Origin: Bacteroidia bacterium
Lineage (GTDB): Bacteria; Bacteroidota; Bacteroidia; Cytophagales; Cyclobacteriaceae
NCBI GenBank assembly: GCA_030430675.1
Contig: JAUIKU010000007.1
Location: forward strand, 1-49,014
DNA length: 49,014 nucleotides
Reading direction: 5' to 3'
Notes under the pieces: model-generated
The model's input: only the letters and a program-made list of their open reading frames with translations
Databases searched by the model: none
Told to the model about the DNA's origin: nothing
Part shown: one piece after another, positions 5,862 to 37,621 of the stretch
Layout of the letters: each line of letters opens with the position of its first letter
Position numbering within the stretch: position 1 is the first letter of the stretch
Made by a program: the position numbers and the translations under genes

Positions 5862-8318
5862 TCAGGTAGTTGTGTATTTGTAAGTGCTGTCCAGATAATC
5901 CTGCAGACAGCGAGCCAGCGCAATTACATCCGGTTCTTCGAAGCGACTACGGTGAGAGCCGGCTGCTTCAAGCAAATGTACACCACCCTGGGCCAACTTT
6001 TGCCAAACCTGATCATCGTGGTTGTTGATACGTTGTACGTTCTGAGAGGTCTGTATTAGGGTTATTTCACCCGGATATGGTTCCCACTGATATTGAAAGT
6101 ATAAGTTCATGAGATTTTCCTGTAATGACAACAGCTTTCTTTTTCTGGGGTCAAAGCTGTATCTCTGGGTAAGTTGTAACCACCTCTCTTTTGGTCGTTT
6201 TAGCAGTTTAACTACCCTGTCTACCACTACCTTTTCTATGGCCTTTGCCGGATTTGACCTAAAACGTTGTTTGAATCGCTGTTTTCGCACATCCATTGGT
6301 GTGCGAACCTTTTTCCGTGGAAATAAATGAGTGGGAGCAGAATCTACAATTATTAAAGCATGCAGGCCCTTTCCTGCTTGCTCCAGTTGTTGTGCCATCT
6401 CATAGCATACAGGATCACTAAAACAGGTTCCCAGGATTGAGTAGGGTCCCTCCGGCTGTACCTGACGGATTACTTCCAGGTAGTGCCGGGCCATTTCCTC
6501 AATGCTGCTATGTTTTTCCTGATCCCCCTCCAAACCCAGAGGCTGCAGCGCATATACCGGTTGCTCAGAATCCAGGTACCGGGTTAATGGGTGATAGAAG
6601 AAAACATGACCGCCGCCACCGTGAATTACAAACAGCGGTGGCTTCGAACCGCGAGCACGCATTGGTACCAGAGAAGACCAGTTTGATGAATCGGGCTGTG
6701 GCAATGATCTGGCCATGGCTGCAATGGTAGGGTTCTGTATCAGGATTGAAGGCGATATTTTTACTCCGATCTTTTCCTCAATGCGATAAACCAGCTTCAT
6801 AGCCATCATGGAATGCCCCCCAATCTGAAAAAAATCATCGTTAATCCCGATTGGATACTTATCGAAAATCTCTTCCCATATTTTAGTCAACTTAAGTTCC
6901 AGTGAATTGGTTGGCGCCTGATAACCCGGAAAACTGGCGCCGGCGGTAATGTTAGTCTTTATACTGCCATTTCTTTTTGTTTCATGCGTCTGATCGGGTT
7001 CTTCGAGACCCTCTAACAAACTATCCAGGTTTATATCTGCGTTTTGTATTACCCGTTCCAACAACCCGCTGATGCCTTCTGAAAGCCATTTCAACTGGCT
7101 TTCTCCAATGATATTTTTGTCATAGCACCAGACGACTTCCAGCTGGTCGCCTGGCCTAACTACCAGAGTAAGCGGATAGGTAGTAGTCAGGTCACCTTTT
7201 GCCCCTGCTACTTGTAATTCACCTACCTGACGATCTTGCCAAACCAGGTTCTGAATGATTACCAGGGTATTGAACAAAGGTTGATGTACTGGCCAGTCTA
7301 TCCAGCCCATTATCTTATCCTGGTCCACATAATCGTAGGTACCGGTCTCCGCTTGTGTTTTTTGGATGGTACGAACCATTTGGAGAAATGACAAACCCGG
7401 TTTTATATCTTGTCGCACCGGTACTACATTCATGAACAATCCTGTCATCCTATCAATTTCCGGAAACCCGGATGATCGCCCCGAAACGGTGGTTCCAAAT
7501 ACAATATCACGATTTCGTGTCAGCCTAGCCAGCAGGATGCTCCAAATTGAAAGCACCAAACTGCTGAGGGTGATTCGATTGTGTTTCAGGTAGCCGGAGA
7601 TTCCGGCAGTCAGTTCTTTTTCCAGCATTATCGACCGCTGTTGCATATGTATGGATCTGGTCTTGGTGCGGGCTTCTCCAACTAACGTGGGCTGCTCGAG
7701 GTTACCCAGCTGGTTGGTCCAGAAGATTTTGGCTTTTTCAGGATCTTGTTTCTTGAGCCAGTTGAGGTAGGTCCGATATGACGGAGCAGGGTCTTGCTGA
7801 AATGTCTTACCCGCTGAGAGTGCCTGGTAACAGTCGAACAGGTCGGAGAAAATCACACCACTGGACCAGCCATCAAATAGTATATGGTGGCAGGACCAAA
7901 TAAGCACATGTTCATTATCCGAGTATTTTATTAGAGAAAGACGGGTCAGCGGTGCCTTTGATAGTTTAAATCCCTTTCTCTTGTCTTGTTCTCTGAACTC
8001 ACTGAGTAATTGTGCTTGACGGTTTCGAGTTTCTTTATCCCAGTTAAGATACTGCCAGGGAATTTTAGCGGTTGAATGGACCACCATCACCGGTTTTTCA
8101 ATTTGTTCCCAGTGTATTGAAGATTTCAAAACGGGATGGAGCTCAACCATTCGCTGCCAGGAATCCCTTAACAGGTCATAGTTCAATGGCCCTTTCAATT
8201 TGCATTGAACCTGCAAAAAACCCTGATCGCGGTCCTGTGAAAGACTGTGGATCAGCAGTGTTTGCTGCATATAGGTCAACGGGTAAATACCCTTAATGGT
8301 GTCTTTAGTCTTGCTCAT
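5862..8318 (-). CDS. NRPS termination protein, C-PCP-TE without A domain
   Basis: 818 residues. The condensation domain (1-440) starts IYPLTYMQQTLLIHSL and has an intact active site HHILFDGW (His145, Asp149). The PCP (about 475-540) has GGHS with Ser503 for phosphopantetheine. The thioesterase (about 558-818) begins PPLFVIHGGGG. There is no adenylation domain: only about 35 linker residues separate C from PCP. The TE nucleophile elbow reads GTCFSD, with Cys632 where GxSxG enzymes have Ser and Ser634 where the second Gly is normal. Asp659 (IVDSAP) and His789 (AAGSHRS) would complete the triad. As the last gene of the minus arm it should receive the chain from the C-A-PCP protein and release it. 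The PCP is either loaded in trans or used for transfer only. Confidence 0.93.
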   Translation of the reverse strand: MSKTKDTIKGIYPLTYMQQTLLIHSLSQDRDQGFLQVQCKLKGPLNYDLLRDSWQRMVELHPVLKSSIHWEQIEKPVMVVHSTAKIPWQYLNWDKETRNRQAQLLSEFREQDKRKGFKLSKAPLTRLSLIKYSDNEHVLIWSCHHILFDGWSSGVIFSDLFDCYQALSAGKTFQQDPAPSYRTYLNWLKKQDPEKAKIFWTNQLGNLEQPTLVGEARTKTRSIHMQQRSIMLEKELTAGISGYLKHNRITLSSLVLSIWSILLARLTRNRDIVFGTTVSGRSSGFPEIDRMTGLFMNVVPVRQDIKPGLSFLQMVRTIQKTQAETGTYDYVDQDKIMGWIDWPVHQPLFNTLVIIQNLVWQDRQVGELQVAGAKGDLTTTYPLTLVVRPGDQLEVVWCYDKNIIGESQLKWLSEGISGLLERVIQNADINLDSLLEGLEEPDQTHETKRNGSIKTNITAGASFPGYQAPTNSLELKLTKIWEEIFDKYPIGINDDFFQIGGHSMMAMKLVYRIEEKIGVKISPSILIQNPTIAAMARSLPQPDSSNWSSLVPMRARGSKPPLFVIHGGGGHVFFYHPLTRYLDSEQPVYALQPLGLEGDQEKHSSIEEMARHYLEVIRQVQPEGPYSILGTCFSDPVCYEMAQQLEQAGKGLHALIIVDSAPTHLFPRKKVRTPMDVRKQRFKQRFRSNPAKAIEKVVVDRVVKLLKRPKERWLQLTQRYSFDPRKRKLLSLQENLMNLYFQYQWEPYPGEITLIQTSQNVQRINNHDDQVWQKLAQGGVHLLEAAGSHRSRFEEPDVIALARCLQDYLDSTYKYTTT

Positions 8319-11300
8319 CCTGGTCAGAACTTAACTGATCGTACAACCTGTCGAGGTCTTCCTGACTGAGACCAGAATCATCAAAGCTATTCTGATCACC
8401 GCTAGTGACAGAAACAACGTCTGTTTTCGTACCACTGTCACCTTGTTTATTGTCAATGGCCTTTGCCAGTTCCTGTATGCTTTGATACTCAAACAAAAAG
8501 TCGGGAGACATGTGTAAGCCCATTTCCCTGGCTTTAGCTACAATATGGATACTAATAATGGAATCGCCTCCCAGTTCAAAAAAATTATCTGTGGTACTGA
8601 TCGTTTCAAGCTTCAGCGCTTCCTTCCAAATTTCCAATAGTTGCTCTTCGGTCCGGTTGAGCGGGTGTATCCGGGTTGATTGGGTGGTATTTATACTGGC
8701 CGGCTCCGGCAAATTTTTTACAGCTATTTTCCCATTGGGCAACCTGGGAAACTTCTTTACTACCACTATGACAGATGGGACCATATATGTGGGTAATTTA
8801 GCTTTAAGATGGTCCTTGACCACAGCAGAAGTCAGGTCTTCCGAACCACTAACATAACCGATTAATCGTGAGCCTTTGTTTTCCTGGCCCACCTGGTGGA
8901 AAGCCCCCTCATTTGACAAACTGGTGGTAGATATAACCAATGATTCCTTCACTCCCGGGTAGCTATTTAGTGCATTCTCTATCTCTCCGGGCTCTATTCT
9001 GAAGCCCCTGATCTTTAGTTGACTATCAACACGACCCAGGTAGTCAATAGTTCCATCAAGATTAAAAGTGCCCAGGTCACCGCTTTTATACATTTTTGCC
9101 AGGGGTTGGCGGACGAAAGCATCCTTGACAAACTTGGCCTCGGTTAAATGGGGTTTGTTCAGGTATCCGGCGGAAACTCCTTCTCCGCCAATATATAATT
9201 CTCCCGCAACTCCTGGGGGGACAAGCTGTTGGTCCTTATCCAGAATATATATGGGAGCATTGGGCAGGGGTCGGCCGATTGGCACAAATGGGTAGTTGTC
9301 CTGAGCTTTTATGGGCTGCACCGAGCACCACACCGTTGCTTCAGTGGGTCCGTATTCATTAAAAAGCAGGCATTCTTTAAGTTTTTCATGATGCAGCAGA
9401 CCAACTTCAACCGGACATACTTCTCCTGCTACAATCACTGTGTTTAAACACTGTAATTTTTCCGTCTGTCCAAAGGACAGAATTAGCCGGTACAATGAGG
9501 GCAACAACAAGATATGCGTGACCCGGTGTTTTGCAATTAGTCCAATAAGTTTTTCAAGATCTTGCTCGATTTTGTTGTCAGGTAAAATCAGGGTGCTCCC
9601 CACACTAAGCGTCCAGTAAATGCCTGCTACCGAACTGTCAAATGCATAGGAGGACAACAGTAAAAATGCTCCGGGTTGCTTTTGATAATACCTGTGCCTC
9701 GATACCGTGCTGTGCAACAGGTTCCTATGGGTGACTTTTACACCCTTGGGACCGGCGGAGCTTCCGGAGGTATAGATTACATATGCCAGGGAGGTTTGGG
9801 CTATTTCCGGCAAATCAATACTGCCTGTATCTTTGGATTCCTCAACATCTTCGTAGATCATGGCGTCTACTCCTGTCGAAGCAAATTTGTTAGCTAATTT
9901 CTTTTGAACCAGAACCGTATCAATGGCGGCATTCTCAATCATATAGTTGATCCGCTCCTCAGGGTAATCCGGATCAATAGGGATGTAGGCCATTCCCGCT
10001 TTCATAATTCCCAGCATGCCGATCAACATTTCAACCGTTCTAGCAGTGCACAGTCCAATCAATTCCACTTCTTTCGAACCATGATGAAGTAGATACTTAG
10101 CAAAATGTTCGCTCTTTTCATGTAATGCACCATAGGTCAGCTGCTGGTCCGGGGCGATCACGGCAATTTTGCCGGGGCTGTCCACAGCATGCCGGGTAAT
10201 CAGGCTTACGATGTCCGTTTCTTCCAATGAGTATTTGCCAGAGCTGCTCCAATGGTTTACGATTTCATGGTATTCCGATTTTTCCAGCATCGGCAACTTC
10301 CCGATTGGAACAGAAGGATCCTCCAGGACGCCGTTGATTAAATTGGTAATATGGTGCTGTATATTTTCAATGGCCTCTTTGCTGAATAGCTCTGTGGAGT
10401 ATTCTAAGGTTAGATCCAGGGAATGGTCTGATTCTGCTACATAAAATGTCAGGTCAAATTTGGATATGCCCAGATCCATATGCCGATAGGTGATCTCAAT
10501 CTCATCTCCGAACCCTGGTGTTTCCGAATTCCTGTGGTATAGAAACATTACCTGGAACAGTGGGTTAGTACCAGGGTGGCGCTCCGGCTGAAGTTCCTGC
10601 ACCAATAGTTCGAAGGGAACATTCTTGTGTTGAAAACCTTCGATTACTGTTTTCCTGACTTCAGCCAGTACCTGAAGAAAGCCCAGGGATCCGTGAATAC
10701 TGGTCCGAAAAACCAGCGTCTCATTGAAAAAACCTATCATCTTTTCCAACACTGTTCTATCCCTATTGTTGACAGGAGCTCCAACCAATAAGTCCGACAA
10801 ACCGGAATACCGATACAACAGCACCTTATAGACTGACAGTAATAGCACGAACATGGTGCAATCCATCTGTTGACAAAGTACTCTCAGTTTTTTAGTAATC
10901 TCAGAGGATACTTTCCATTCCGATAAACCTCCTTTGAATGTTACAGCCCCGGATCTGTTACTGCGGGCCAAAAGTTTGATTAAAGGTAATTCACCGGAGA
11001 GTTTGTCTTTCCAGTAGGATAGATCCTGCTGAAATACCGTTTGATTGCGCTGCCAATAGGCAAAATCACGGTATTGTACCGGTAGTGTGGATAGTTCTTC
11101 ACCACGGTAGGCCCTGGCCCACTCTTCTCTCATTAGCATGCTCGACCATTGATCGGTAATCATATGATGCAGGGTGAGCACCAGATCAAATTTGAAGTCA
11201 GTTTGTTTAAGCACAGAGATCCTAACCAAAGGGCCCTGTTGTAAATCAAATGGCTTATTCGCTTCCTCTCTGGCCAGCGTGTCGAAGCTTTCAGGTGAAA

Positions 11301-11667
11301 GCATGACCGTAGGGATAATGTTTAGCTCTATCCTTGGCTCAGCATGCACCAACTGAACCGGGGTTCCATCTGTCAAAGGGAAGGTGGTGCGCAGTATTTC
11401 ATGTTTTAATACCACTTTTTCGAAGCTTGCAATTAACCTTTCCAGGTCTGGTTTTCCCGAAAAAGAATATCGTTCTACATAATGATAAAAAGGACTTTTT
11501 GGGTTTAACTCCTGTAAAAAGTAGATTCGTTGCTGTCCGAAAGAAAGTGGAATGCCGATGTCATCCGGGGCCGGACCTATATCCTTGGAATTTCCATCCT
11601 GATTCAGGGATAGCCACTGCTGAAGCAGCTGATCACTTTCCTTCTTCCTGGAATCACCATGGCTCAT
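8305..11667 (-). CDS. NRPS elongation module C-A-PCP
   Basis: 1120 residues. The condensation domain (about 38-470) has HHMITDQW (His168, Asp172), with Gln in place of the usual Gly after Asp. The adenylation domain (about 485-985) has A3 written YTSGSSAGPKG (632-642; canonical YTSGSTGxPKG), then NEYGPTEAT, YKSGDLG, IRGFRIEPGEIE and a terminal NGK. The PCP has FFELGGDS with Ser1036. Pocket residues read by alignment to GrsA give D-S-A-L-I-A-E-V-W-K, which I cannot assign to one amino acid. The C-terminal 25 residues are acidic with a helical LSQEDLDRLYDQL, a plausible docking segment for the next protein, whose start it overlaps by 14 bases. Activates and adds one residue to the growing chain. 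Confidence 0.94.
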   Translation of the reverse strand: MSHGDSRKKESDQLLQQWLSLNQDGNSKDIGPAPDDIGIPLSFGQQRIYFLQELNPKSPFYHYVERYSFSGKPDLERLIASFEKVVLKHEILRTTFPLTDGTPVQLVHAEPRIELNIIPTVMLSPESFDTLAREEANKPFDLQQGPLVRISVLKQTDFKFDLVLTLHHMITDQWSSMLMREEWARAYRGEELSTLPVQYRDFAYWQRNQTVFQQDLSYWKDKLSGELPLIKLLARSNRSGAVTFKGGLSEWKVSSEITKKLRVLCQQMDCTMFVLLLSVYKVLLYRYSGLSDLLVGAPVNNRDRTVLEKMIGFFNETLVFRTSIHGSLGFLQVLAEVRKTVIEGFQHKNVPFELLVQELQPERHPGTNPLFQVMFLYHRNSETPGFGDEIEITYRHMDLGISKFDLTFYVAESDHSLDLTLEYSTELFSKEAIENIQHHITNLINGVLEDPSVPIGKLPMLEKSEYHEIVNHWSSSGKYSLEETDIVSLITRHAVDSPGKIAVIAPDQQLTYGALHEKSEHFAKYLLHHGSKEVELIGLCTARTVEMLIGMLGIMKAGMAYIPIDPDYPEERINYMIENAAIDTVLVQKKLANKFASTGVDAMIYEDVEESKDTGSIDLPEIAQTSLAYVIYTSGSSAGPKGVKVTHRNLLHSTVSRHRYYQKQPGAFLLLSSYAFDSSVAGIYWTLSVGSTLILPDNKIEQDLEKLIGLIAKHRVTHILLLPSLYRLILSFGQTEKLQCLNTVIVAGEVCPVEVGLLHHEKLKECLLFNEYGPTEATVWCSVQPIKAQDNYPFVPIGRPLPNAPIYILDKDQQLVPPGVAGELYIGGEGVSAGYLNKPHLTEAKFVKDAFVRQPLAKMYKSGDLGTFNLDGTIDYLGRVDSQLKIRGFRIEPGEIENALNSYPGVKESLVISTTSLSNEGAFHQVGQENKGSRLIGYVSGSEDLTSAVVKDHLKAKLPTYMVPSVIVVVKKFPRLPNGKIAVKNLPEPASINTTQSTRIHPLNRTEEQLLEIWKEALKLETISTTDNFFELGGDSIISIHIVAKAREMGLHMSPDFLFEYQSIQELAKAIDNKQGDSGTKTDVVSVTSGDQNSFDDSGLSQEDLDRLYDQLSSDQDEQD

Positions 11668-14985: not shown

Positions 14986-16080
14986 TTGGAAAAAGCAAAC
15001 GATACCACTTTAATACTTCAGGGGTCGGACGTCGAGTCAATAATTCAGCATCATGGTTTGAATAAAATTATGGATGTCTTAATTGAACGATTGCAAGATG
15101 CCATAGCCTCCTACCTCCCGGATAAAATACAGATTCCGGTACGCTCGGGACTTCACTACCAGCATCCTCATGATGGTTTAATAGAGTGGATGCCCCTGTT
15201 GCATACCGGGGAACAGGCAATAATTAAGGTGGTGGGTTATCACCCATTCAACCCTGAGGTTTATCAAAAGCCCACCATACTTTCGACAGTTTCGTCGTAC
15301 GATGTAAGTACTGGCCATCTGACTGCGGTAATTGATGGTGTTTTGTTGACTGCAATCAGAACAGGTGCGGCCTCGGCAGTAGCCAGTAAATACCTGGCAC
15401 ACCCTCAAAGTTCGGTGCTGGGCATCATTGGGTGTGGCGCGCAGTCAGTAACCCAGTTACATGCACTGGCCAGGGTATTTCCCATTAGAAAGGTCCTGAT
15501 TTATGATATTGACCAGGCTGCGATCAATTCTTTTGCTTCGCGCATTGAACCCTTGCAACTCGATGTTGAGATCGTTGCTAAAGAAGCCAATCAAATAGCT
15601 GAAGAAGTAGATATTTTAGTTACCGCCACCACTGTAGAGGTTGGAGGCCGCCCCTTGTTCGAACAACTAAATACCAGATCCCACCTACATATTAATGCCG
15701 TGGGCTCTGACTTTCCAGGCAAGGTTGAGTTACCACTGGACCTGTTGAAAAGGGGTTTCGTCTGCCCGGACTTCCCGGAACAGGCCCGGGAGGAAGGAGA
15801 ATGCCAGATGCTGCAGGAGCAGGAGATTGGACCTTCCTGGGTGGAGGTTATTAAAAACTACGCAGATTACAAACACCTGCCATCAATGTTGACAGTGTTT
15901 GACTCAACCGGCTGGCCATTGGAGGACCTGGTGCTGATGGAAATGTTCATCGCATACGCCCGGGAGTTAGGCGTGGGACAAAAAGTAGCACTTGAACTTG
16001 TTTTGGAAGATTCGAAAAGCCCATACCAATTTATCAATACCAAGAATGCGCAGATTAAGGTTACTAAATCTGCCGGTTAA
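14986..16080 (+). CDS. ornithine cyclodeaminase family protein
   Basis: 364 residues. Ornithine cyclodeaminases convert L-ornithine to L-proline and ammonia using bound NAD. Seen here are RTGAAS (125-130), the dinucleotide loop GIIGCGAQS (146-154) and GSDFPGKVEL with Asp242, matching the GxDxPGKxEl segment that carries the catalytic Asp in true cyclodeaminases. Translation appears to start at TTG: a later ATG (15071) would remove the conserved first helix, and no ATG lies in frame upstream. First gene of the plus arm, 18 bases before the TonB receptor. Proline supply fits the prolyl-AMP-ligase and prolyl dehydrogenase downstream. The related SbnB enzymes for diaminopropionate are an alternative, but no SbnA-type partner is present in the window. 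Confidence 0.88.
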   Translation: MEKANDTTLILQGSDVESIIQHHGLNKIMDVLIERLQDAIASYLPDKIQIPVRSGLHYQHPHDGLIEWMPLLHTGEQAIIKVVGYHPFNPEVYQKPTILSTVSSYDVSTGHLTAVIDGVLLTAIRTGAASAVASKYLAHPQSSVLGIIGCGAQSVTQLHALARVFPIRKVLIYDIDQAAINSFASRIEPLQLDVEIVAKEANQIAEEVDILVTATTVEVGGRPLFEQLNTRSHLHINAVGSDFPGKVELPLDLLKRGFVCPDFPEQAREEGECQMLQEQEIGPSWVEVIKNYADYKHLPSMLTVFDSTGWPLEDLVLMEMFIAYARELGVGQKVALELVLEDSKSPYQFINTKNAQIKVTKSAG

Positions 16081-18326: not shown

Positions 18327-19478
18327 ATGGATTTTTCCTGGACAGAAGAACAAGTTGCCATTAAAGAAAAAATGGTGGCATTTGCTCAGAAGACCCTGAG
18401 CGATGACGTGATCCAGCGTGATCTGTCCGGGGAGTTTGCCAGAGACCTCTGGAGTAAATGTGCAGATTTTGGGATACATGCATTGTCAGTTCCCTCCCAA
18501 TATGGTGGAGCGGAAGAGGAGGTTGATATTCTTACCGCCATGCTGGCCATGGAGGGACTGGGATACGGATGCAGAGACAATGGTTTGACCTTTGGTTTGA
18601 ATGCCCAGATGTGGACAGTGCAATTACCCATTGTTCAATTCGGTACCGAGGTACAAAAAAGAAAGTTCTTACCTGGATTACTGGATGGAACTTTGATCGG
18701 TGCGCATGCACTTTCAGAACCTGAAGCGGGATCCGATCTTTTTAATTTGCAAATGACCGCCAAAAAAGTAGATGGGGGTTATCTGTTGAATGGTACCAAG
18801 TGCCTGGTAACTTTTGCTCCAATAGCCGACCTAGCTTTGATTTTAGCCAACGTTAATCCGGAGTTGGGAAAATGGGGCATCACGGCATTTTTGGTGGAGC
18901 GGGATACCGAGGGTTATACAGCCGGTCCGGTGAAGAGTAAAATGGGGCTAAGGACTGTACCATTTGGAGAGATCCTATTGGAGGATTGCCTGGTACCGGA
19001 ATCGAATCGACTGGGAACTGAAGGTTCTGGATTTAGCCTTATTAATCATTCGTTAGAATACGAACGATGCTGTATACTGGCCAGCCAGTTGGGTGCCATG
19101 CAAAGACAGTTGGAGGAAGCCCTTGATTTTGCAAAGGAAAGAGTGCAGTTCGGCCAGACCATTGGCAAGTTTCAGTCGGTTTCCAACCGGATTGTTGATA
19201 TGAAGTTGCGGCTGGAAACTTCCCGGTTATTGTTATATAAGGTGGCCTGGCTAAAAAAAATGGAAAAACCGGCCATGCTGGAGGCCGCATTGCTAAAATT
19301 ACATTTAAGTGAATGCTTTCTGGATTCAAGCCTGGATGCCATTAGAACTTTCGGAGGTGGCGGCTATTTATCCGACTGGGGAATTGAACGGGATTTAAGG
19401 GATGCTATCGGAGGCACCCTTTATGCAGGCACCTCAGATATACAGCGGAACATCGTGGCCAAATTGTTGGGATTATAG
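18327..19478 (+). CDS. acyl-CoA dehydrogenase-like prolyl-PCP dehydrogenase
   Basis: 383-residue FAD enzyme of the acyl-CoA dehydrogenase fold. In pyrrole pathways (PltE, RedW, CloN3) such enzymes oxidise prolyl-S-PCP to pyrrole-2-carboxyl-S-PCP. Supporting features are ALSEPEAGSD (128-137), the helix LEYERCCILASQLG with Glu246 placed like the base of isovaleryl-CoA dehydrogenase, and IGKFQSVSNRIVDMKLRLE (279-297), close to what I recall from pyrrole-forming members. The medium-chain-type catalytic Glu near the C-terminus is Ala (YAGTSDIQ), so the base must be the internal Glu. It sits directly before a stand-alone A domain and a free PCP, the classical three-gene pyrrole starter set. An ordinary fatty-acid enzyme is unlikely in this setting. 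Confidence 0.85.
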   Translation: MDFSWTEEQVAIKEKMVAFAQKTLSDDVIQRDLSGEFARDLWSKCADFGIHALSVPSQYGGAEEEVDILTAMLAMEGLGYGCRDNGLTFGLNAQMWTVQLPIVQFGTEVQKRKFLPGLLDGTLIGAHALSEPEAGSDLFNLQMTAKKVDGGYLLNGTKCLVTFAPIADLALILANVNPELGKWGITAFLVERDTEGYTAGPVKSKMGLRTVPFGEILLEDCLVPESNRLGTEGSGFSLINHSLEYERCCILASQLGAMQRQLEEALDFAKERVQFGQTIGKFQSVSNRIVDMKLRLETSRLLLYKVAWLKKMEKPAMLEAALLKLHLSECFLDSSLDAIRTFGGGGYLSDWGIERDLRDAIGGTLYAGTSDIQRNIVAKLLGL

Positions 19479-21051: not shown

Positions 21052-21290
21052 AGGAAATAATTACCGCATATATCAATGAGGAAATACTGGGGGGAGCTCA
21101 GGCTGTTGAAGTAAACGCTGAGGATGACCTGTTGGGTAGCGGACTGCTTGACTCACTGGGTATGATGGCATTGGTCGCCTTTATTGAACAGCGATTCAAC
21201 ACCAAAATCCCTCCACAGGACATGACTATCGAAAACTTCCAAACGATTCAATCGATTTCCAATTACCTGAGAAAAAGGGATGTAGCCTGA
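21048..21290 (+). CDS. free peptidyl carrier protein
   Basis: 80 residues, a complete carrier domain. GSGLLDSLGMM places Ser36 (in DSL) for the 4'-phosphopantetheine arm. The size and the DSL form match the free PCPs of pyrrole starter sets (PltL, RedO, CloN5 type), which hold proline while it is oxidised. Overlaps the A-domain gene by four bases (ATGA) and the next NRPS gene by one (TGATG), so the three should be made in fixed ratio. It should be primed by the PPTase at 25435-26124. Confidence 0.92.
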   Translation: MKEIITAYINEEILGGAQAVEVNAEDDLLGSGLLDSLGMMALVAFIEQRFNTKIPPQDMTIENFQTIQSISNYLRKRDVA

Positions 21291-24200
21291 TGATCTCCAA
21301 AACTGGGTATTCCACTTATGATCTAACAAAAAGTCAACTTATGTTGTGGACGGGTCAGGAACTTAATCCTGCCACACCACTCTACAACATGGCTCTGACA
21401 TTCGATATTGAGGGGTCGATTAATCCCGATGTTTTCGGGAAATCATTTCATAAGTTGGTGGAGTATTGTGATGCCATGAGACTCACATTTGCAGTTAAGC
21501 ACGGGGAACCTTTTCAGAAGCTCAACCAGGAAGTACCATATCAGTTTGAATATTTGGACTGGTCCCAAGAGGCAAAACCATTGGTACGATCCGGACAGTG
21601 GGTCCAGGAAAATAGTCGACGCAAGCTGGACCTTTCCCGCTGTGCATTCCATTCGGCACTTATCCGCCTCCACCCCAACCGTCATATTTGGTTTTTGAAT
21701 CAACATCATCTTATCACCGATGCCTGGTCGGTTTCAATCCAATACCGAACCATGGCAGCCATCTACCAGTCATTAATAAATGAACAGTCCCTGCCCAGGC
21801 GTCTGCCATTATATTCCAGTTATATAGCGCATGAAAGCAAAATAAGGAAGGAACAGGCAAATGCCGAAGCGGAGCGGTATTGGCAGGACCAACTCAGTAT
21901 TACACCCGAACTGCCTAAGTTGTATGGTCATTCCCAACCGGTATTTGGCACCACTACCACCAGGGTAACCCTGGATCTTGGAAAAGAAAGATCTGACAGG
22001 TTGCGAGCGCTCACTCTGGAGGAAGATCTTAAGGCCTGGACTCAGCATCTTTCGTTGTATAACATATTTGCTACGGTGTTGTCGGTTTACCTTTTCAGGG
22101 TCACCGCACAGGATAGAATTTCGTTTGGGACTCCTGCCCACAATCGTTCCACCTTACCTTTTAAAAGTACGGCAGGACTATTTATCGAACTGTATCCAAT
22201 CATCTGCAAGCTGGCGCCGGCTCAAACCTTTCAGTCCGTTTTCAGAGATCTTCAGGAACGGATTCATGAGTTTCTTAAAAATGCAAAACCGGGGGTGGCC
22301 TCTGCCAATCTCAACCGCAGTTTTCATGTGATCCTCAATTATATCCACGCTGAATTCTCGGATTTTAATGGACTTCCGGTAAAATCGACCTGGATACATC
22401 CCGGGCATTGTGATCCTCGTCATTATCTGCGGGTCCAGGTACACGATTTTGACGCTTCTGGTAGTATCGAAGTTAACTTCGACCTCAATCACGAAGTATT
22501 CGGAGCGCAGCAATTTGGCAATATTTCACAACATTTTTTGGCCTTGCTGGACGCGTTTATTGAAAACCGGCGACAGACCATTGACAGACCTCCAATTCTT
22601 GCCCCTGAGGAGAAACGAGTCCTGACGGAAGACTTCAATGGAACCTATGCCCCGGAATCGGCCGCTCTGATGAAACAATTTTCATCTGCCTGTCATGACT
22701 ACCGGGACCGTACCGCGATTGAATGGAACGACCAGCGAATGACCTTTGGTCAACTGGAGCAGGAATCCAACCGGATGGCTGAATATCTTATGCATTTGGG
22801 AATAGCTAAAGGGTCCGTAGTGGTAGTAAATTTATATCGTTCTATCGATTATTTCGTGGCGGTGTGGGGTATCTTAAAACGCGGGGCGATATTCATCCCA
22901 TTAGCCAGTAATACGCCCGTTAACCGGTTGAAGCATATAATAGCAGATGTTGAGGCTTCCCTGGTAATCACCGATTCCGTTGCAGCCGGGCACTGGTCAG
23001 CCCTTCGAACAGGTATCGTTACAGATTTCAGGAATAAGCTTGTGCAGTATTCCCCTGGAAAAACCAATGTTAATATCCACAGTGCGGATCCGGCTTATAT
23101 TATTTACACCTCAGGGTCAACCGGCAGTCCCAAGGGAGTAGTTGTCAGTCACGGAGCATTGGTAAATTATTTGGCTTCGTCCAAAAGTATCTATCTGGAA
23201 AATGACAGGCAGCAACAACCTCCTGTTTTTCCGTTTTTCACAAACATTTCGTTCGATCTCACGATAACCTCGGTATTTCTTCCCATACTCACCGGGGGGA
23301 AAGTAATCGTTTATCAAGAACCTAAGGTCGGTCCGGACCTGACATTGTTGAGTGTAGTAAGGGAAAACAAGATCAACGCCATTAAGCTGACCCCGGCACA
23401 TTTGGCACTGCTTAAGGGGCAATCATTTGCTGCTTCCAACGTGAAGCTTCTTATTGTGGGTGGAGAAAATCTAAAGTCCCCGGATGCCAAAAGTGCATTG
23501 CAATCCTTCACTAATGCTCCTGTGTTATTCAATGAGTACGGCCCTACTGAAGCAACGGTTGGTTGTATCGTCCATCAATACCAGGTCGCTGATCTTGAAT
23601 CACCATCGGTGCCTATAGGAAAGCCCATTCAAAATATGAGAGCTTATGTTTTGAACAGTGGTTTAAACCTTCAACCAGTTGGTACCACCGGTGAGTTGTA
23701 TCTGGCTGGAGCAGGGTTGGCCAATGGCTATTGGAATATACCTGATGACAATAGTTTTATTGATGATCCATTTTATCCGGGCACAAAAATGTATGGCACC
23801 GGTGATCTGGTCTTTATGAACAACAGACATGAGCTGGTGTTCCTTGGGAGAAAGGATGAGCAAATTCAAATCGGAGGTGCCAGGGTAGAATTAGGTGAGA
23901 TTGAATCACAAATATCCCAGCATCCACGGATAGACCAATGTGTTGTTGACGTGGATTTAGGCGGGGAAACCGTTGATTCGCCGGAAAGGTATTGTTCAAA
24001 ATGTGGTATTCCGTCTAATTATCCGGGCATCATCTTCGACCAGGAAGGGGTATGTGATTTGTGCCTTTCCTTTGAGCAATACAAGCAAAAGACCGGGGCT
24101 TACTTTAAGCGGAAAGATGAATTGAGGACGCTGTTGTCCAGTGTATCACTGGATGAATCCCGGGAGTACCACTGTATAATGTTATTGAGTGGGGGTAAGG

Positions 24201-25444
24201 ATAGCACTTATGCGCTATCACAATTGGTGGAGATGGACATAAAGGTACTGGCATTTACACTGGACAACGGATATATCTCGGACCAGGCCAAGTCCAACAT
24301 TCAAAGAGTGGTTAATGCCCTTGGTGTCGATCATGTTTTTGGTGAGACCAGGGCCATGAATGAAATCTTCGTCGATAGCCTGGAGCGATTCAGCAATGTA
24401 TGCAATGGATGTTTCAAGACTATTTACACCCTGAGCACAAATCTGGCAGTTACAAAGAATATCCCTTTTATTGTGACAGGCTTATCCAGGGGTCAATTTT
24501 TCGAGACCCGTTTAACCGAAGAGTTGTTCCGAAAGGAGACCATTGGACCGGAAGAAATTGACCAAACCATATTAGAGGCGAGAAAGATCTATCATCGCAC
24601 GGAGGATGCGGTAAACAGGTTGTTGGATGTTTCTGTTTTCCAAAATGACAGGGTATTCGATAAGGTCCGTTTTGTGGATTTTTATCGGTTCTGCGATGTG
24701 AGTATGGATGAAATGATGCAACACCTGGATCAAAAACTTCCCTGGGTACGGCCCACAGATACCGGAAGATCAACCAATTGTCTGATTAACCAGGCAGGGA
24801 TCTATATTCATAAGAAGGAAAGGGGTTATAGCAACTATGCGTTTCCCTATAGTTGGGACGTCCGAATGGGGCATAAAACCCGAGAAACCTCTATGGAGGA
24901 GATCAATGAAGAAATTGATGAACAGCAGGTCCATAAAATCCTAACTGAAATAGGGTATGATCCAGTGGCGGCACATCCGCAACAAAAACAATTGGTGGCT
25001 TATTACCAGTCTGATAAGCCAATTTCCAAAAAAGAAATTCTGGATCACTTATCGAAATTGCTGCCGGATTATATGATTCCGTCAAAATATGTCCAACTGG
25101 AAGAGTTTCCCCTAACTGCCAACGGAAAGGTGGATCGCAAATTGCTAAAAAAGACCGGCAGTGAACGAAAAGCAGAACACAGTAGTAAACCTCCCGTTAC
25201 CATGATAGAAAAGAAAATTCACAGTATTTGGTCAGAGGTGCTAAATACAGATGAATTTGGCATCGATGAGGAATTCATACAGGTGGGGGGAAACTCACTG
25301 GCAGCGATACGAGTGATGTCCAGGATAAATGAATTTTTCAAACTAGGTCTATCCCTCTCCAGTATCTTCGAATTTTCGACTATTGAGTCATTTTCAGGTT
25401 ATGTAGAAGAAACCATCAAACAATTAATCGGACCTCAAACCTGA
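21290..25444 (+). CDS. NRPS C-A-PCP with PP-loop ATPase inserted in the A domain
   Basis: 1384 residues. C domain 1-440: HHLITDAW (His140, Asp144). A domain from about 450: YTSGSTGSPKG, FNEYGPTEAT and A8 at 851-872. After CVVDVDLG the A domain stops and about 345 other residues follow: zinc-ribbon cysteines 902/905 and 922/925, PP-loop SGGKDS (967-972), CNGC (1038-1041) and a later Cys in GRSTNCLIN. The A domain resumes near LVAYYQSDK (about 1233) and ends with NGKVDRK (Lys1280). The PCP has GGNS, Ser1336. Pocket residues read D-L-T-K-I-G-E-V-G-K, one conservative change from the known Asn code. PP-loop enzymes adenylate a carbonyl oxygen and replace it with N or S; zinc-ribbon plus CxxC members include tRNA thiolation enzymes. 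Inferred: loads Asn and performs amidation or thiolation in cis. Confidence 0.92.
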   Translation: MISKTGYSTYDLTKSQLMLWTGQELNPATPLYNMALTFDIEGSINPDVFGKSFHKLVEYCDAMRLTFAVKHGEPFQKLNQEVPYQFEYLDWSQEAKPLVRSGQWVQENSRRKLDLSRCAFHSALIRLHPNRHIWFLNQHHLITDAWSVSIQYRTMAAIYQSLINEQSLPRRLPLYSSYIAHESKIRKEQANAEAERYWQDQLSITPELPKLYGHSQPVFGTTTTRVTLDLGKERSDRLRALTLEEDLKAWTQHLSLYNIFATVLSVYLFRVTAQDRISFGTPAHNRSTLPFKSTAGLFIELYPIICKLAPAQTFQSVFRDLQERIHEFLKNAKPGVASANLNRSFHVILNYIHAEFSDFNGLPVKSTWIHPGHCDPRHYLRVQVHDFDASGSIEVNFDLNHEVFGAQQFGNISQHFLALLDAFIENRRQTIDRPPILAPEEKRVLTEDFNGTYAPESAALMKQFSSACHDYRDRTAIEWNDQRMTFGQLEQESNRMAEYLMHLGIAKGSVVVVNLYRSIDYFVAVWGILKRGAIFIPLASNTPVNRLKHIIADVEASLVITDSVAAGHWSALRTGIVTDFRNKLVQYSPGKTNVNIHSADPAYIIYTSGSTGSPKGVVVSHGALVNYLASSKSIYLENDRQQQPPVFPFFTNISFDLTITSVFLPILTGGKVIVYQEPKVGPDLTLLSVVRENKINAIKLTPAHLALLKGQSFAASNVKLLIVGGENLKSPDAKSALQSFTNAPVLFNEYGPTEATVGCIVHQYQVADLESPSVPIGKPIQNMRAYVLNSGLNLQPVGTTGELYLAGAGLANGYWNIPDDNSFIDDPFYPGTKMYGTGDLVFMNNRHELVFLGRKDEQIQIGGARVELGEIESQISQHPRIDQCVVDVDLGGETVDSPERYCSKCGIPSNYPGIIFDQEGVCDLCLSFEQYKQKTGAYFKRKDELRTLLSSVSLDESREYHCIMLLSGGKDSTYALSQLVEMDIKVLAFTLDNGYISDQAKSNIQRVVNALGVDHVFGETRAMNEIFVDSLERFSNVCNGCFKTIYTLSTNLAVTKNIPFIVTGLSRGQFFETRLTEELFRKETIGPEEIDQTILEARKIYHRTEDAVNRLLDVSVFQNDRVFDKVRFVDFYRFCDVSMDEMMQHLDQKLPWVRPTDTGRSTNCLINQAGIYIHKKERGYSNYAFPYSWDVRMGHKTRETSMEEINEEIDEQQVHKILTEIGYDPVAAHPQQKQLVAYYQSDKPISKKEILDHLSKLLPDYMIPSKYVQLEEFPLTANGKVDRKLLKKTGSERKAEHSSKPPVTMIEKKIHSIWSEVLNTDEFGIDEEFIQVGGNSLAAIRVMSRINEFFKLGLSLSSIFEFSTIESFSGYVEETIKQLIGPQT

Positions 25445-26124
25445 GCAAAAAGATCCCCGTATTTTACTTCTTCAATAACTAACTGGCTCGGAATGGCCTC
25501 TGCTGCTACACACCCCAAGTACTCCTTCCCAAGGGTAAATGGTTTTAAATACCAAAGCCTGTGGTCGTATGTTACCGTTTGATTCTCTACAATAATATCC
25601 TCCAAAGGAATGGAAAGTCCCCGTCCATCCGCTTTTATCACACTTTCTTTTATACTCCAGTACTCAAAGAATTTTTCGAATTGATCAGGATGCCCTTGAA
25701 TTTCATTCCATTGATTACCGTTCATGGTCCGTCTAAAATCATTAAAATCAATTTCTCGTTTCAACTCTATATCCACACCAATCCGATTGTGATAACCCAG
25801 TGCGCAGGTCACTATTTTTCCCGCATGTGCAATATTGAAATCCACAGTTGCACCCGGTAGGTAAGGACGGTTTAAGGAGGTAAGGGACAATTGGTTCAGA
25901 TCAAGATCTTCTTTACAAACCGCCTTCCAGGTTTTTTTAAGCAGCAGTAATCCGTAAAGATGCCTTAGTTTGTCTTCCTTTCTTCTAAACCTCACATTTT
26001 TTGCCATTAAACTTTGGGGCAGAGTTCGCAAAAACCTCTCCACCTGGCTCGATGATGGCTCCGTGATTTTGGTATAGGTAACTACCAAAAGTTTATCATC
26101 ATTTGGCATTTCAGTGGCACTCAT
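25435..26124 (-). CDS. Sfp-type 4'-phosphopantetheinyl transferase
   Basis: 229 residues. Transfers phosphopantetheine from CoA to the carrier-domain serines. Motifs in order: FNIAHAGKIVTCAL, IGVDIELKREIDF (metal-binding Asp-x-Glu) and YWSIKESVIKADGRGL (the W-x-x-K-E motif). The length is normal for the Sfp class used by NRPSs. It is convergent with the interrupted-A NRPS gene and overlaps its last 10 bases, and follows the isoaspartyl methyltransferase gene after one base, so it is transcribed from the 28-kb side rather than with the synthetase arms. It is the obvious activator of the four carrier domains in this cluster. Confidence 0.92.
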   Translation of the reverse strand: MSATEMPNDDKLLVVTYTKITEPSSSQVERFLRTLPQSLMAKNVRFRRKEDKLRHLYGLLLLKKTWKAVCKEDLDLNQLSLTSLNRPYLPGATVDFNIAHAGKIVTCALGYHNRIGVDIELKREIDFNDFRRTMNGNQWNEIQGHPDQFEKFFEYWSIKESVIKADGRGLSIPLEDIIVENQTVTYDHRLWYLKPFTLGKEYLGCVAAEAIPSQLVIEEVKYGDLFAQV

Positions 26125-35920: not shown

Positions 35921-37621
35921 ATGAAAAGGATACTAGTTCCGGTAGTAATGCTGGTGGCGGTTTGTTTGTTTGAAAGCTGTACTTCAGGAAAACAGGCTTA
36001 CCAAAAAGGAAATTATGACGATTCGGTGCTGAAGGCGATATCCCGGCTCAGAAAGAGTCCCAACAATAAAAAGGCCGCTCAGACCCTGATGGAAGCATAC
36101 CCCATGACTATCAGCTGGCATCAGGACAATATTGACAGGGCCAAGCAATCAGGGGATGATTTTAAATGGGAAAGAGTAGTAAGTGAGTACAAACAGGTGA
36201 ATTATTTGTACGATCAACTCAGCCGGTGCCCGGCCTGTCTTCGACTAGTCAGCAATCCAGTACACTATGTAAGTGAGTTAAATCAAGCCAGAGAGACGGC
36301 AGCTGCAATTCGCTATCAGCGAGGGGAAGAATTATTGACCAGGGCCCGCAGTACCCACAACCGGAACGAAGCCATCGAAGCCTATAAGCATTTCCAGATA
36401 GCTTGTAATCTGGTAGGAGAGTACAAGGATGCGCGGGATAAACTGGCAGAAGCCAAATTTTTGGCTACACTAAAAGTGGTGGTAGAACCTATTCCTGCTC
36501 ACAGAAACCTGGAAATATCTCATGAATTTTTCGAAAACAAGATACTGGAGTTTGTGGAATCCATGCAGGTTAATGAGTTTGTGCAGTTTTACTCATTTAC
36601 CGAAGCGCAAAACGTAGGACTGGAACAGCCCGACCAAATAATACAACTTCAGTTCGATGAATTTGTATTGGGACAGGTATATATGAAGGAGAAGGAAATC
36701 CAGTTGAGTAAAGATAGTGTAGTATTGGCGGTGATCAAGGCACAAAACGAGGTGGAGCATTCAGATGCATTAGTATTGAATCATCCCAAGGATCAACTGG
36801 CCGGAGTATTGAGATATCGGGAAGCCAGTCCGGTTATTGCCAGCCCCGTATTCTACACCGGAGGCGGAAAACAGAAAAAAGTGACGGTATGCCATAAGAT
36901 TCCCAACAGCCTGGGGAAAGCACAAACTTTGAGTATTTCACAAAGCGCCCTCCAACATCATCTGGACCATGGTGATCTACAAGGTTCTTGTAATGGTGAA
37001 AGCAATACCAACCAGGCCGAGGAAGGAAACAAAACCAATAGTAACACCAATACCAACGGTAATTCCAACAACAACGGTACTTCACAACAATCTCAAAATA
37101 CCACTATCACTACTACTTATCCATCTACCAGCAGTACCCAGACGACCGGGTCCACCCAGTCCAATAATAAAACTGATAAAACCGAGGTGCAAAGAAGCAG
37201 TAGTGGGTATCAGGCTGTGGATTTAAGCAATATTCAAAATGGCAGTAGCTCAGAAAATGTAAATACAGTTACCGCTCAGAATGATCCCGAACCTGCGGAA
37301 CGAAAAGTATATGGTACGGTAAAAGCTACCGTTCATGTATTCAATAAATCGCTGACCTCTCGTGGAATCCTGGACTTCAAGATTATTGATGCTCATAATC
37401 AAAGAGTACTTTCCCAGGAGAAGATGCCCGGTGAATTTGTATGGTACACAGAATGGGGATACTTTAACGGCGATGAGAGGGCCCTGGATGAGTACTTCCT
37501 GGAGGTAGTGAAGTTGAAAGAAGCTTATCCTCCGCCACCACAAGATCTTTTCGTGGCGTTTACCCAGCCAATATTTGGCCAGGTAACCAGTAAGATCAGG
37601 GACTTTTACAGGGGTTATTAG
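35921..37621 (+). CDS. repeat lipoprotein with a VCHK/HLDHGD motif domain
   Basis: 566 residues. The lipoprotein signal ends CLFESCTSG (Cys20). Residues 25-200 are helical with TPR-like character (AYQKGNYDDSVLKAISRL). Near residue 325 lies a short domain VTVCHKIPNSLGKAQTLSI...HHLDHGDLQGSC, a form I know from secreted Bacteroidota proteins, normally VTICHKPPG...HLAHGD...GPC. A Ser/Thr/Asn-rich linker (about 365-435, runs such as NTNTNGNSNNNGT) leads to a C-terminal beta domain (VYGTVKATVHVFNKSL). Likely anchored in the outer membrane, facing the surface. Function unknown. Confidence 0.82.
   Translation: MKRILVPVVMLVAVCLFESCTSGKQAYQKGNYDDSVLKAISRLRKSPNNKKAAQTLMEAYPMTISWHQDNIDRAKQSGDDFKWERVVSEYKQVNYLYDQLSRCPACLRLVSNPVHYVSELNQARETAAAIRYQRGEELLTRARSTHNRNEAIEAYKHFQIACNLVGEYKDARDKLAEAKFLATLKVVVEPIPAHRNLEISHEFFENKILEFVESMQVNEFVQFYSFTEAQNVGLEQPDQIIQLQFDEFVLGQVYMKEKEIQLSKDSVVLAVIKAQNEVEHSDALVLNHPKDQLAGVLRYREASPVIASPVFYTGGGKQKKVTVCHKIPNSLGKAQTLSISQSALQHHLDHGDLQGSCNGESNTNQAEEGNKTNSNTNTNGNSNNNGTSQQSQNTTITTTYPSTSSTQTTGSTQSNNKTDKTEVQRSSSGYQAVDLSNIQNGSSSENVNTVTAQNDPEPAERKVYGTVKATVHVFNKSLTSRGILDFKIIDAHNQRVLSQEKMPGEFVWYTEWGYFNGDERALDEYFLEVVKLKEAYPPPPQDLFVAFTQPIFGQVTSKIRDFYRGY

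What the first reader, a model, noticed from the sequence alone, without database searches (positions are those of the whole stretch)
23950..24990. NRPS adenylation domain interrupted by a zinc-ribbon PP-loop ATPase
Seen: the A domain of the 1384-residue NRPS keeps A1-A8, then about 345 foreign residues intervene (CxxC 902/905, CxxC 922/925, SGGKDS 967-972, CNGC 1038-1041, a later lone Cys), then A9-A10 resume and a PCP follows. Known: interrupted A domains carry methyltransferases, oxygenases or ketoreductases at the same A8/A9 site; PP-loop enzymes replace an activated carbonyl oxygen with N or S. Inference: the insert modifies the residue held by this module, giving a thioamide, thiocarboxylate or new amide. 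I do not recall such an insertion being described, so this is the strongest novelty candidate in the window.
Basis: partly seen in the sequence, partly recalled or inferred. Interest (0 to 1): 0.95.

Follow-up and report, generated by a model that had tools for sequence, protein, structure and literature searches.

The report
Known asparagine-modifying domain inside an NRPS
A peptide-building enzyme carries, inside its asparagine-selecting part, a second enzyme of an already described kind that most likely turns the bound asparagine into a nitrile; a likely iron-sulfur site and a wide spread are the added points.

Summary
The 1384-residue NRPS (21290-25444, +) is C-A-[insert]-A-PCP. A zinc-ribbon PP-loop domain of about 327 residues sits between A8 and A9. 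It is no misassembly: A core and insert share one ORF in all 80 genome loci kept, from many phyla.

The claim of novelty falls. This fits the AMDH (aminomutase/amide dehydratase) domain of cystobactamid CysH and the AANH insert of albicidin AlbIV (PMC7966384, PMC12283262). CysH converts carrier-bound L-asparagine to beta-cyanoalanine (-18 Da) or isoasparagine. The host A domain reads DLTKIGEVGK, a code PMC12283262 links to beta-cyanoalanine. The genome shows no CysJ-type (TauD) hydroxylase, so dehydration to the nitrile is the best guess, not a thioamide.

Two points add to what I read. First, 81 of 81 inserts keep three cysteines (C1038, C1041, C1164) in the pattern that holds an open-site [4Fe-4S] cluster in NcsA and CtaC. 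None of 37 more distant WbuX-like homologs has the CxxC pair. This could explain the brown colour of CysH, whose authors found no CxxCxxxC motif. Second, the window's cluster type (HupE/UreJ, prolyl-type A/PCP/dehydrogenase, AMDH-NRPS, TonB) recurs widely, product unknown. CysH and AlbIV themselves were not aligned.

The parts
21290..25444 (+). NRPS, 1384 aa, C-A-[AMDH]-A-PCP
21314..22624 (+). Condensation domain (residues 9-445)
   Evidence: PF00668, 224 bits
22685..23947 (+). A-domain core through A8 (residues 466-886); code reads DLTKIGEVGK
   Evidence: PF00501 and TIGR01733; code; link to beta-cyanoalanine from PMC12283262
23984..24964 (+). Inserted AMDH-type zinc-ribbon PP-loop (AANH) domain (residues about 899-1225)
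   Evidence: TIGR03573 130.6 bits (whole protein) and 135 bits (insert alone), below its 203.2 cut-off; in an A-domain ORF in 80 of 80 loci kept; model pLDDT 91.2
23993..24064 (+). Zinc-ribbon tetracysteine C902, C905, C922, C925
   Evidence: 81, 80, 80 and 81 of 81 rows for C905, C902, C922, C925 (L111 has Tyr at 922, L078 a gap at 902); the same motif binds zinc in LpNASAT (PMC10607449 passages)
24188..24205 (+). PP-loop SGGKDS (residues 967-972), ATP site
   Evidence: SGGKDS columns invariant in A2 and A4
24401..24412 (+). CNGC (C1038, C1041), first two cysteines of the proposed [4Fe-4S] triad
   Evidence: 81 of 81 rows; the CxxC aligns with a CxxC of MmLarE 8cnz
24779..24781 (+). C1164, distal third cysteine of the proposed [4Fe-4S] triad (DTGRSTNCLIN)
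   Evidence: 81 of 81 rows; 17 of 17 in A2
24965..25159 (+). Rest of the A-domain C-terminal subdomain with A9 (LPDYMIP) and A10 (NGKVDR)
   Evidence: PF13193 residues 1235-1280; motifs read
25214..25405 (+). PCP (residues 1309-1372)
   Evidence: PF00550
21048..21287 (+). Stand-alone carrier protein, 80 aa
   Evidence: PF00550, 37.1 bits
19402..21051 (+). Stand-alone adenylation enzyme, likely prolyl (pyrrole starter)
   Evidence: TIGR01733, 351 bits; substrate inferred from the neighbouring dehydrogenase
18327..19478 (+). Prolyl-carrier-protein dehydrogenase-like flavoenzyme
   Evidence: NF053553 PigA 417 bits (cut-off 500), NF045652 352.4 bits (cut-off 650)
14986..16080 (+). Ornithine cyclodeaminase / mu-crystallin family protein
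   Evidence: PF02423
16099..18321 (+). TonB-dependent receptor
   Evidence: PF00593, PF07715
11703..12974 (-). HupE/UreJ family membrane protein
   Evidence: PF13795
8305..11667 (-). NRPS C-A-PCP
5862..8318 (-). NRPS C-PCP-TE, no A-domain hit
25435..26124 (-). 4'-phosphopantetheinyl transferase
   Evidence: PF01648

Best explanation
The insert is an AMDH domain. The A domain selects L-asparagine and loads it on the module's own PCP. The PP-loop of the insert then uses ATP to activate the oxygen of the side-chain amide (I assume as an adenylate, as is usual for PP-loop enzymes; the published proposal for albicidin is a phosphorylation), and loss of the activated oxygen gives carrier-bound beta-cyano-L-alanine. 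Isomerisation to isoasparagine is the known alternative outcome. The residue is joined to an upstream acyl group, probably pyrrole-2-carboxyl from the neighbouring prolyl-type A/PCP/dehydrogenase set, and passed on. The insert has two metal sites: a structural zinc ribbon, as in N-acetyl sugar amidotransferases, and a [4Fe-4S] cluster held by C1038, C1041 and C1164 whose open iron could bind the amide or the departing group. Shown here: anatomy, A-domain code, conservation, predicted fold. Shown by others for CysH: asparagine loading, -18 Da, dependence on the AMDH domain. Inferred: that this protein does the same, the activation step, the cluster and its role, the upstream acyl group.
For: Same kind of place (inside an A domain), size and superfamily as the inserts described for AlbIV (342 aa, AANH) and CysH (38 kDa, SGGKD), whose BLAST homologs the authors found all in Asn-specific A domains. 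The host code reads DLTKIGEVGK, which PMC12283262 calls compatible with beta-cyanoalanine, a residue it found only in albicidin. 78 of the 81 A domains (window plus 80 loci) could be read at the first eight positions; all are DL[TS]K[IV]GE[VI], 71 of them DLTKIGEV. No TauD-type enzyme in the whole genome at E<=0.001, while the control rings in E. coli; PMC7966384 reports that dehydration mainly occurs without CysJ. A solved PP-loop enzyme named nitrile synthetase ArtA (9lei) is among the nearer folds, Z 13.6, rmsd 2.8, 163 aligned. For the cluster: the triad is kept in 81 of 81 rows (window plus 80 loci) and 17 of 17, with [4Fe-4S] LarE 8cp4 (Z 13.7) and NcsA 6scy (Z 13.3) among the nearest folds; purified CysH is dark brown.
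Against: CysH and AlbIV sequences are in no collection I could reach, so kinship with them rests on described features, not an alignment. The three-cysteine pattern is also that of CtaC, a carrier-dependent thioamide synthetase, and of tRNA thiolases, so it could be read as sulfur chemistry. The authors of PMC7966384 looked for an Fe-S motif (CxxCxxxC) in AMDH and reported none; they left the mechanism open. The fold match to [4Fe-4S] enzymes is no better than to cluster-free PP-loop enzymes (NAD synthetase 1xng, Z 13.7). The genome is in 368 contigs, so a missing TauD gene is not certain.
Confidence: 0.87

Rival explanations
1. The insert is an AMDH domain that mainly isomerises carrier-bound asparagine to isoasparagine rather than dehydrating it. 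(A variant of the best explanation, which names both outcomes.)
For: The same domain does both in CysH; deleting it abolished the isoasparagine and the cyanoalanine linkers.
Against: In the CysH model the methoxylated isoasparagine linker comes from the substrate hydroxylated by CysJ; no TauD-family protein is found in this genome. But a cysJ deletion still gave some isoasparagine beside asparagine and cyanoalanine.
Confidence: 0.2
2. The insert is a carrier-dependent thioamide or thiocarboxylate synthetase like CtaC, using the [4Fe-4S] cluster to deliver sulfide.
For: CtaC is an AANH protein on PCP-bound substrates with C154/C157/C284 and D77/S78; here C1038/C1041/C1164 and D971/S972 have similar spacing (CxxC to distal Cys 123 against 127 residues).
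Against: The described inserts in Asn-type A domains give nitrile or isomer, not sulfur. In loci such as L142 and L146 the insert sits in an A-PCP protein with no C-domain hit in its ORF, so no backbone amide need exist at that stage there.
Confidence: 0.07
3. The insert is a true N-acetyl sugar amidotransferase relative that replaces the amide oxygen by ammonia to give an amidine.
For: Its own-domain NCBIfam hit is TIGR03573; closest solved structure is LpNASAT 8wex, Z 21.0, rmsd 4.7, 303 aligned; shared zinc tetracysteine.
Against: 130.6-135 bits against a cut-off of 203.2; none of 37 more distant WbuX-like homologs read has the CxxC pair; no glutamine amidotransferase hit among the ten window proteins scanned between 5.8 and 26.1 kb.
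Confidence: 0.03

Closest known systems
AMDH domain of CysH (cystobactamid) and the homologous insert of AlbIV (albicidin)
   Same: PP-loop/AANH domain of about 38 kDa with SGGKD inserted in an Asn-selecting A domain with a T domain; a code linked to beta-cyanoalanine, DLTKIGEVGK (PMC7966384, PMC12283262)
   Different: CysH and AlbIV are described as stand-alone A-T modules; here the module also has a C domain and sits in a different cluster (HupE/UreJ, TonB, prolyl-type A). No CysJ-type hydroxylase found in the genome. Direct alignment not done.
N-acetyl sugar amidotransferases (WbpG/WbuX; LpNASAT 8wex)
   Same: fold over 303 residues, zinc tetracysteine, SGGKDS
   Different: below the family cut-off; the CxxC and distal Cys columns hold no cysteine in the 37 WbuX-like homologs read
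[4Fe-4S] AANH sulfur enzymes: CtaC, NcsA, TtuA, MmLarE
   Same: PP-loop; three-cysteine CxxC...C pattern (CtaC and NcsA positions read); CtaC also acts on PCP-bound substrate
   Different: they are sulfur enzymes; CysH AMDH removes water; fold match covers only 157-198 residues
Methyltransferase-interrupted A domains (TioS, 5wmm)
   Same: insertion between A8 and A9 (PMC11355689 passages), host A domain intact; model aligns over 469 residues
   Different: the inserted enzyme is unrelated
ArtA nitrile synthetase (9leh, 9lei)
   Same: PP-loop fold, named nitrile synthetase; Z 13.6
   Different: known to me only from the entry titles; no paper found or read

Membership tests
AMDH domain (CysH/AlbIV type) | insertion within an A domain | tested here: met
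AMDH domain (CysH/AlbIV type) | host A domain has an Asn-type specificity code | tested here: met
   DLTKIGEVGK; code compatible with beta-cyanoalanine in PMC12283262
AMDH domain (CysH/AlbIV type) | about 38 kDa with ATP motif SGGKD | tested here: met
   about 327 residues, SGGKDS 967-972
AMDH domain (CysH/AlbIV type) | sequence homology to CysH or AlbIV | not tested
   neither sequence was obtained; supplementary motifs not seen
AMDH domain (CysH/AlbIV type) | dehydration or isomerisation of carrier-bound L-Asn | not testable with these tools
   needs intact-protein mass spectrometry
N-acetyl sugar amidotransferase (TIGR03573) | score over the curated cut-off (203.2 bits) | tested here: not met
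   130.6 and 135 bits
N-acetyl sugar amidotransferase (TIGR03573) | tetracysteine zinc motif and SGGxDS | tested here: met
   one member (L111; L064 shows the same change) has lost one zinc cysteine
[4Fe-4S] AANH sulfur enzymes (CtaC/TtuA/NcsA) | three conserved cysteines, CxxC plus distal Cys | tested here: met
   sequence pattern only: 81 of 81 rows; the cluster itself is not shown
[4Fe-4S] AANH sulfur enzymes (CtaC/TtuA/NcsA) | whole-length fold or sequence membership | tested here: inconclusive
   Z 11.9-13.7 over 157-198 residues, tied with cluster-free PP-loop enzymes
[4Fe-4S] AANH sulfur enzymes (CtaC/TtuA/NcsA) | sulfur insertion | not testable with these tools
   needs an assay
Interrupted A domain, A8/A9 type | A8 before and A9-A10 after the insert, A fold intact | tested here: met
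   window; in the 80 loci an A8 pattern in 79, a strict A10 pattern in 62, a hit to the A C-terminal part in 77

The most novel reading that the evidence does not exclude
AMDH domains are iron-sulfur enzymes: a PP-loop ATPase that joins the zinc ribbon of sugar amidotransferases to the open-site [4Fe-4S] cluster of the tRNA thiolases and CtaC, and uses it not to deliver sulfur but to dehydrate (or isomerise) a carrier-bound amide. This would explain the brown colour of CysH and give an unexplained nitrile-forming and isomerising reaction a testable mechanism, in a domain seen here in many phyla.
Probability: 0.65. Interest if true: 0.6.

Novelty: new member of a known kind. Interest (0 to 1): 0.45.

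Why it matters
It moves the finding from a supposed new NRPS chemistry to a described one, and adds a handle. The AMDH mechanism was left open in the paper that named it, where no CxxCxxxC motif was found although the protein is brown. The invariant CxxC...C triad makes an iron-sulfur mechanism testable by simple mutants. The domain also marks a widespread cluster type (HupE/UreJ, prolyl-type A/PCP/dehydrogenase, often a TonB receptor) for which I found no product, and which might make pyrrole-capped peptides with beta-cyanoalanine or isoasparagine.

Tried and rejected
Misassembly or two fused genes: rejected, since 80 of 80 loci kept and 17 of 390 family genomes show the insert in a long single ORF.

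Thioamide reading: at first favoured because of the CtaC-like triad; dropped to a rival once PMC12283262 and PMC7966384 showed the known chemistry.

Getting CysH or AlbIV for a direct alignment: not achieved. A sample of the class of G796 (a gammaproteobacterium by its record title) gave 1 of 369 genomes at E<=1e-40, the starting genome itself. Plasmids gave 3 records, of which I read two. I did not look further for the albicidin genes of their crop-pathogen producer.

Cysteine geometry in the model: no coordinates were laid in the box, so distances are untested.

Stachelhaus reading: the MAFFT reading misplaced position 331 by one; I read it from YGPTE as G. The motif script picked a wrong first FD in some rows and failed on 8 of 100; I rely for positions 235-330. 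In one search, 3 of 81 insert rows had no readable A3 (L108, L124, L153).

Distant homologs: one search read only 14 of 38 loci because my motif was too narrow; one search read 37 of 38 (L048 not). These are ORFs of 370-806 aa; some are therefore longer than a bare WbuX, and I did not annotate them. Several match the profile only up to position 122, so their register at the CxxC is weak.

Alignment A4 holds the window and 54 of the 80 loci, picked by me for spread; L111, which lacks one zinc cysteine, was not among them. therefore recounts all 80.

Papers: Lundy 2020 on interrupted A domains is not held and was not read. Cociancich 2015, Baumann 2014 and Labby 2015 were seen only in reference lists. 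Six terms searched inside PMC13185837 gave nothing of use. Searches without a useful hit: 'N-acetyl sugar amidotransferase' with 'nonribosomal peptide', 'interrupted A domain' with 'PP-loop', HupE with NRPS, copper, nickel or metallophore terms (listings only). I saw no mention of an Fe-S cluster in AMDH in the listings; this does not prove there is none.
Full report
What is there. The window has one 1384-aa ORF at 21290-25444 (+) with a condensation domain (9-445), an A-domain core (466-886), a resumed A C-terminal part (1235-1280) and a PCP (1309-1372). Between core and C-terminal part lies a zinc-ribbon PP-loop domain, residues about 899-1225, with C902/C905/C922/C925, SGGKDS 967-972, CNGC 1038-1041 and C1164.

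It is real and common. In a relatives search 13 of 59 genomes matched the insert, five of them (own included) at 1e-88 or better. In the same family 17 of 390 genomes, own included, match at E<=1e-40, all in open frames of 914-1429 aa. In 80 of 80 the A core and the insert are in one ORF; a hit to the rest of the A domain follows in 77, an A8 pattern precedes in 79, and a strict A10 pattern follows in 62. Of the three without the downstream hit, two ORFs end with the contig (L080, L131), and in L154 that short part gave no hit. Record titles include Bacteroidetes, cyanobacteria, Acidimicrobiia, Anaerolineae, Acidobacteria, Gemmatimonadetes, Pirellulaceae, Nitrospirae, Microvirga and Bradyrhizobium. 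In the class of G796, a gammaproteobacterium by its record title, 1 of 369 sampled genomes had it at E<=1e-40, namely G796 itself.

Structure. The insert folds with mean pLDDT 91.2. Its nearest solved structure is the Legionella N-acetyl sugar amidotransferase 8wex (Z 21.0, rmsd 4.7, 303 aligned), then a tied group at Z about 12-13.7 that includes [4Fe-4S] LarE 8cp4, NAD synthetase 1xng, the nitrile synthetase ArtA 9lei and [4Fe-4S] NcsA 6scy. The model of residues 455-1384 (pLDDT 84.6, pTM 0.60) aligns with the methyltransferase-interrupted A domain 5wmm over 469 residues, Z 47.9, rmsd 2.0. 5wmm is TioS as I take it: its title is cut at 'Ti', and PMC11355689 (passages) lists TioS as interrupted between a8 and a9.

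Known counterpart. PMC12283262 (passages read) states that beta-cyanoalanine was found only in albicidin, that its activating domain has a 342-residue insertion probably of the AANH superfamily, which suggests conversion of Asn in situ by AlbIV, and that the code DLTKIGEVGK is compatible with this residue. PMC7966384 (abstract and passages read) names the corresponding 38-kDa domain of CysH (69% identical to that of AlbIV) AMDH. CysH loaded with L-Asn goes from +114 to +96, which needs the AMDH domain. Deleting the domain removes the isoasparagine and cyanoalanine linkers. SGGKD is conserved. All homologs their BLAST found sit in Asn-specific A domains, none linked to a known metabolite. The review PMC8949500 (passage read) reports the same and gives, for albicidin, phosphorylation of the side-chain amide oxygen; I think adenylation likelier for a PP-loop enzyme (inference). 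The window's A domain reads DLTKIGEVGK, and 78 of 81 related A domains that could be read agree closely. So the finding is a further member of a described kind. The gap: neither CysH nor AlbIV was aligned, and the exact insertion site in them was not checked.

Which outcome. PMC7966384 reports that dehydration mainly occurs without the hydroxylase CysJ, a SyrP-like protein; I took TauD (PF02668) as its family from recall. The whole genome (368 contigs) has no PF02668 match at E<=0.001, with a positive control in E. coli. I therefore favour the nitrile. A cysJ deletion still gave some isoasparagine, so that stays open.

What is added. PMC7966384 notes that purified CysH is dark brown but found no CxxCxxxC motif, thought a radical mechanism unlikely, and left the mechanism open. 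In NcsA the [4Fe-4S] cluster is held by three cysteines only (C142, C145, C233), with presumed zinc sites at the ends (PMC10067955 passages); in CtaC the residues are C154, C157 and C284 (PMC6772006, parts 1 and 2 of 3 read). The inserts have this pattern in 81 of 81 rows, the window and all 80 loci, and in 17 of 17 of the family set. The Roseovarius and Streptomyces plasmid copies have it too. Of 38 more distant WbuX-like loci, 37 could be read; none has cysteine at these three columns, while 35 keep all four zinc cysteines; the register there is weak for some. HMMER aligns the CxxC with a CxxC of MmLarE 8cnz, which I take to be its cluster ligands (not checked). This is a sequence argument; no cluster has been shown.

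Surroundings. Next to the NRPS lie a stand-alone carrier protein, a stand-alone A enzyme, a PigA-like prolyl-carrier dehydrogenase, an ornithine cyclodeaminase family protein, a TonB receptor, a HupE/UreJ protein and two more NRPS genes, plus a phosphopantetheinyl transferase. Among the 47 of 80 loci with at least 7 kb on both sides of the ORF, HupE occurs in 35, a prolyl-type A enzyme in 35, TonB in 30, the dehydrogenase in 24 and the cyclodeaminase in 20 (rough counts from one query each). In Microvirga and Bradyrhizobium loci the set is smaller: A-AMDH-A-PCP, dehydrogenase, thioesterase. A pyrrole-2-carboxyl cap and a role in metal uptake are guesses from the neighbours.

Verdict. Observation confirmed; novelty claim not upheld; chemistry most likely amide dehydration. 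The iron-sulfur reading is the part a specialist might find surprising.

Noticed in passing
window 5862-26124; L078-L157: A recurring cluster type: HupE/UreJ, ornithine cyclodeaminase family, prolyl-type A enzyme, carrier protein, PigA-like dehydrogenase, AMDH-NRPS, TonB receptor. HupE in 35, prolyl-type A in 35 and TonB in 30 of the 47 loci with good flanks (rough counts). No product found in the searches made.
   Followed up: partly
L159:11953-14133: Streptomyces plasmid copy (38.7% identical): the AMDH domain is not inside an A domain but leads a protein annotated as condensation domain-containing; the gene before it is a complete A-PCP by eye, and asnB is next to that. A trans-acting AMDH would be a variant of the described form.
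   Followed up: partly
window 8305-11667; L160:9418-17466: The second-module A domains of the window and of Roseovarius both read, by hand, DSALIAEVW; I do not know the residue.
   Followed up: no
window 5862-8318: C-PCP-TE protein without an A-domain hit, so its carrier must be loaded in some other way or skipped.
   Followed up: no
L066, L027 (G017): A 46%-identical insert in a 974-aa protein that begins with the A domain, between two large ORFs (2873 aa and over 1200 aa, not annotated by me).
   Followed up: no
L064 (G009) and L111: One zinc-ribbon cysteine is replaced by Tyr, while the three-cysteine triad is kept.
   Followed up: no
L158 / L141 (G796): Only locus titled gammaproteobacterial among the 80; 1 of 369 sampled genomes of its class.
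   Followed up: no
window 35921-37621: 566-aa ORF without a Pfam match at 0.001.
   Followed up: no
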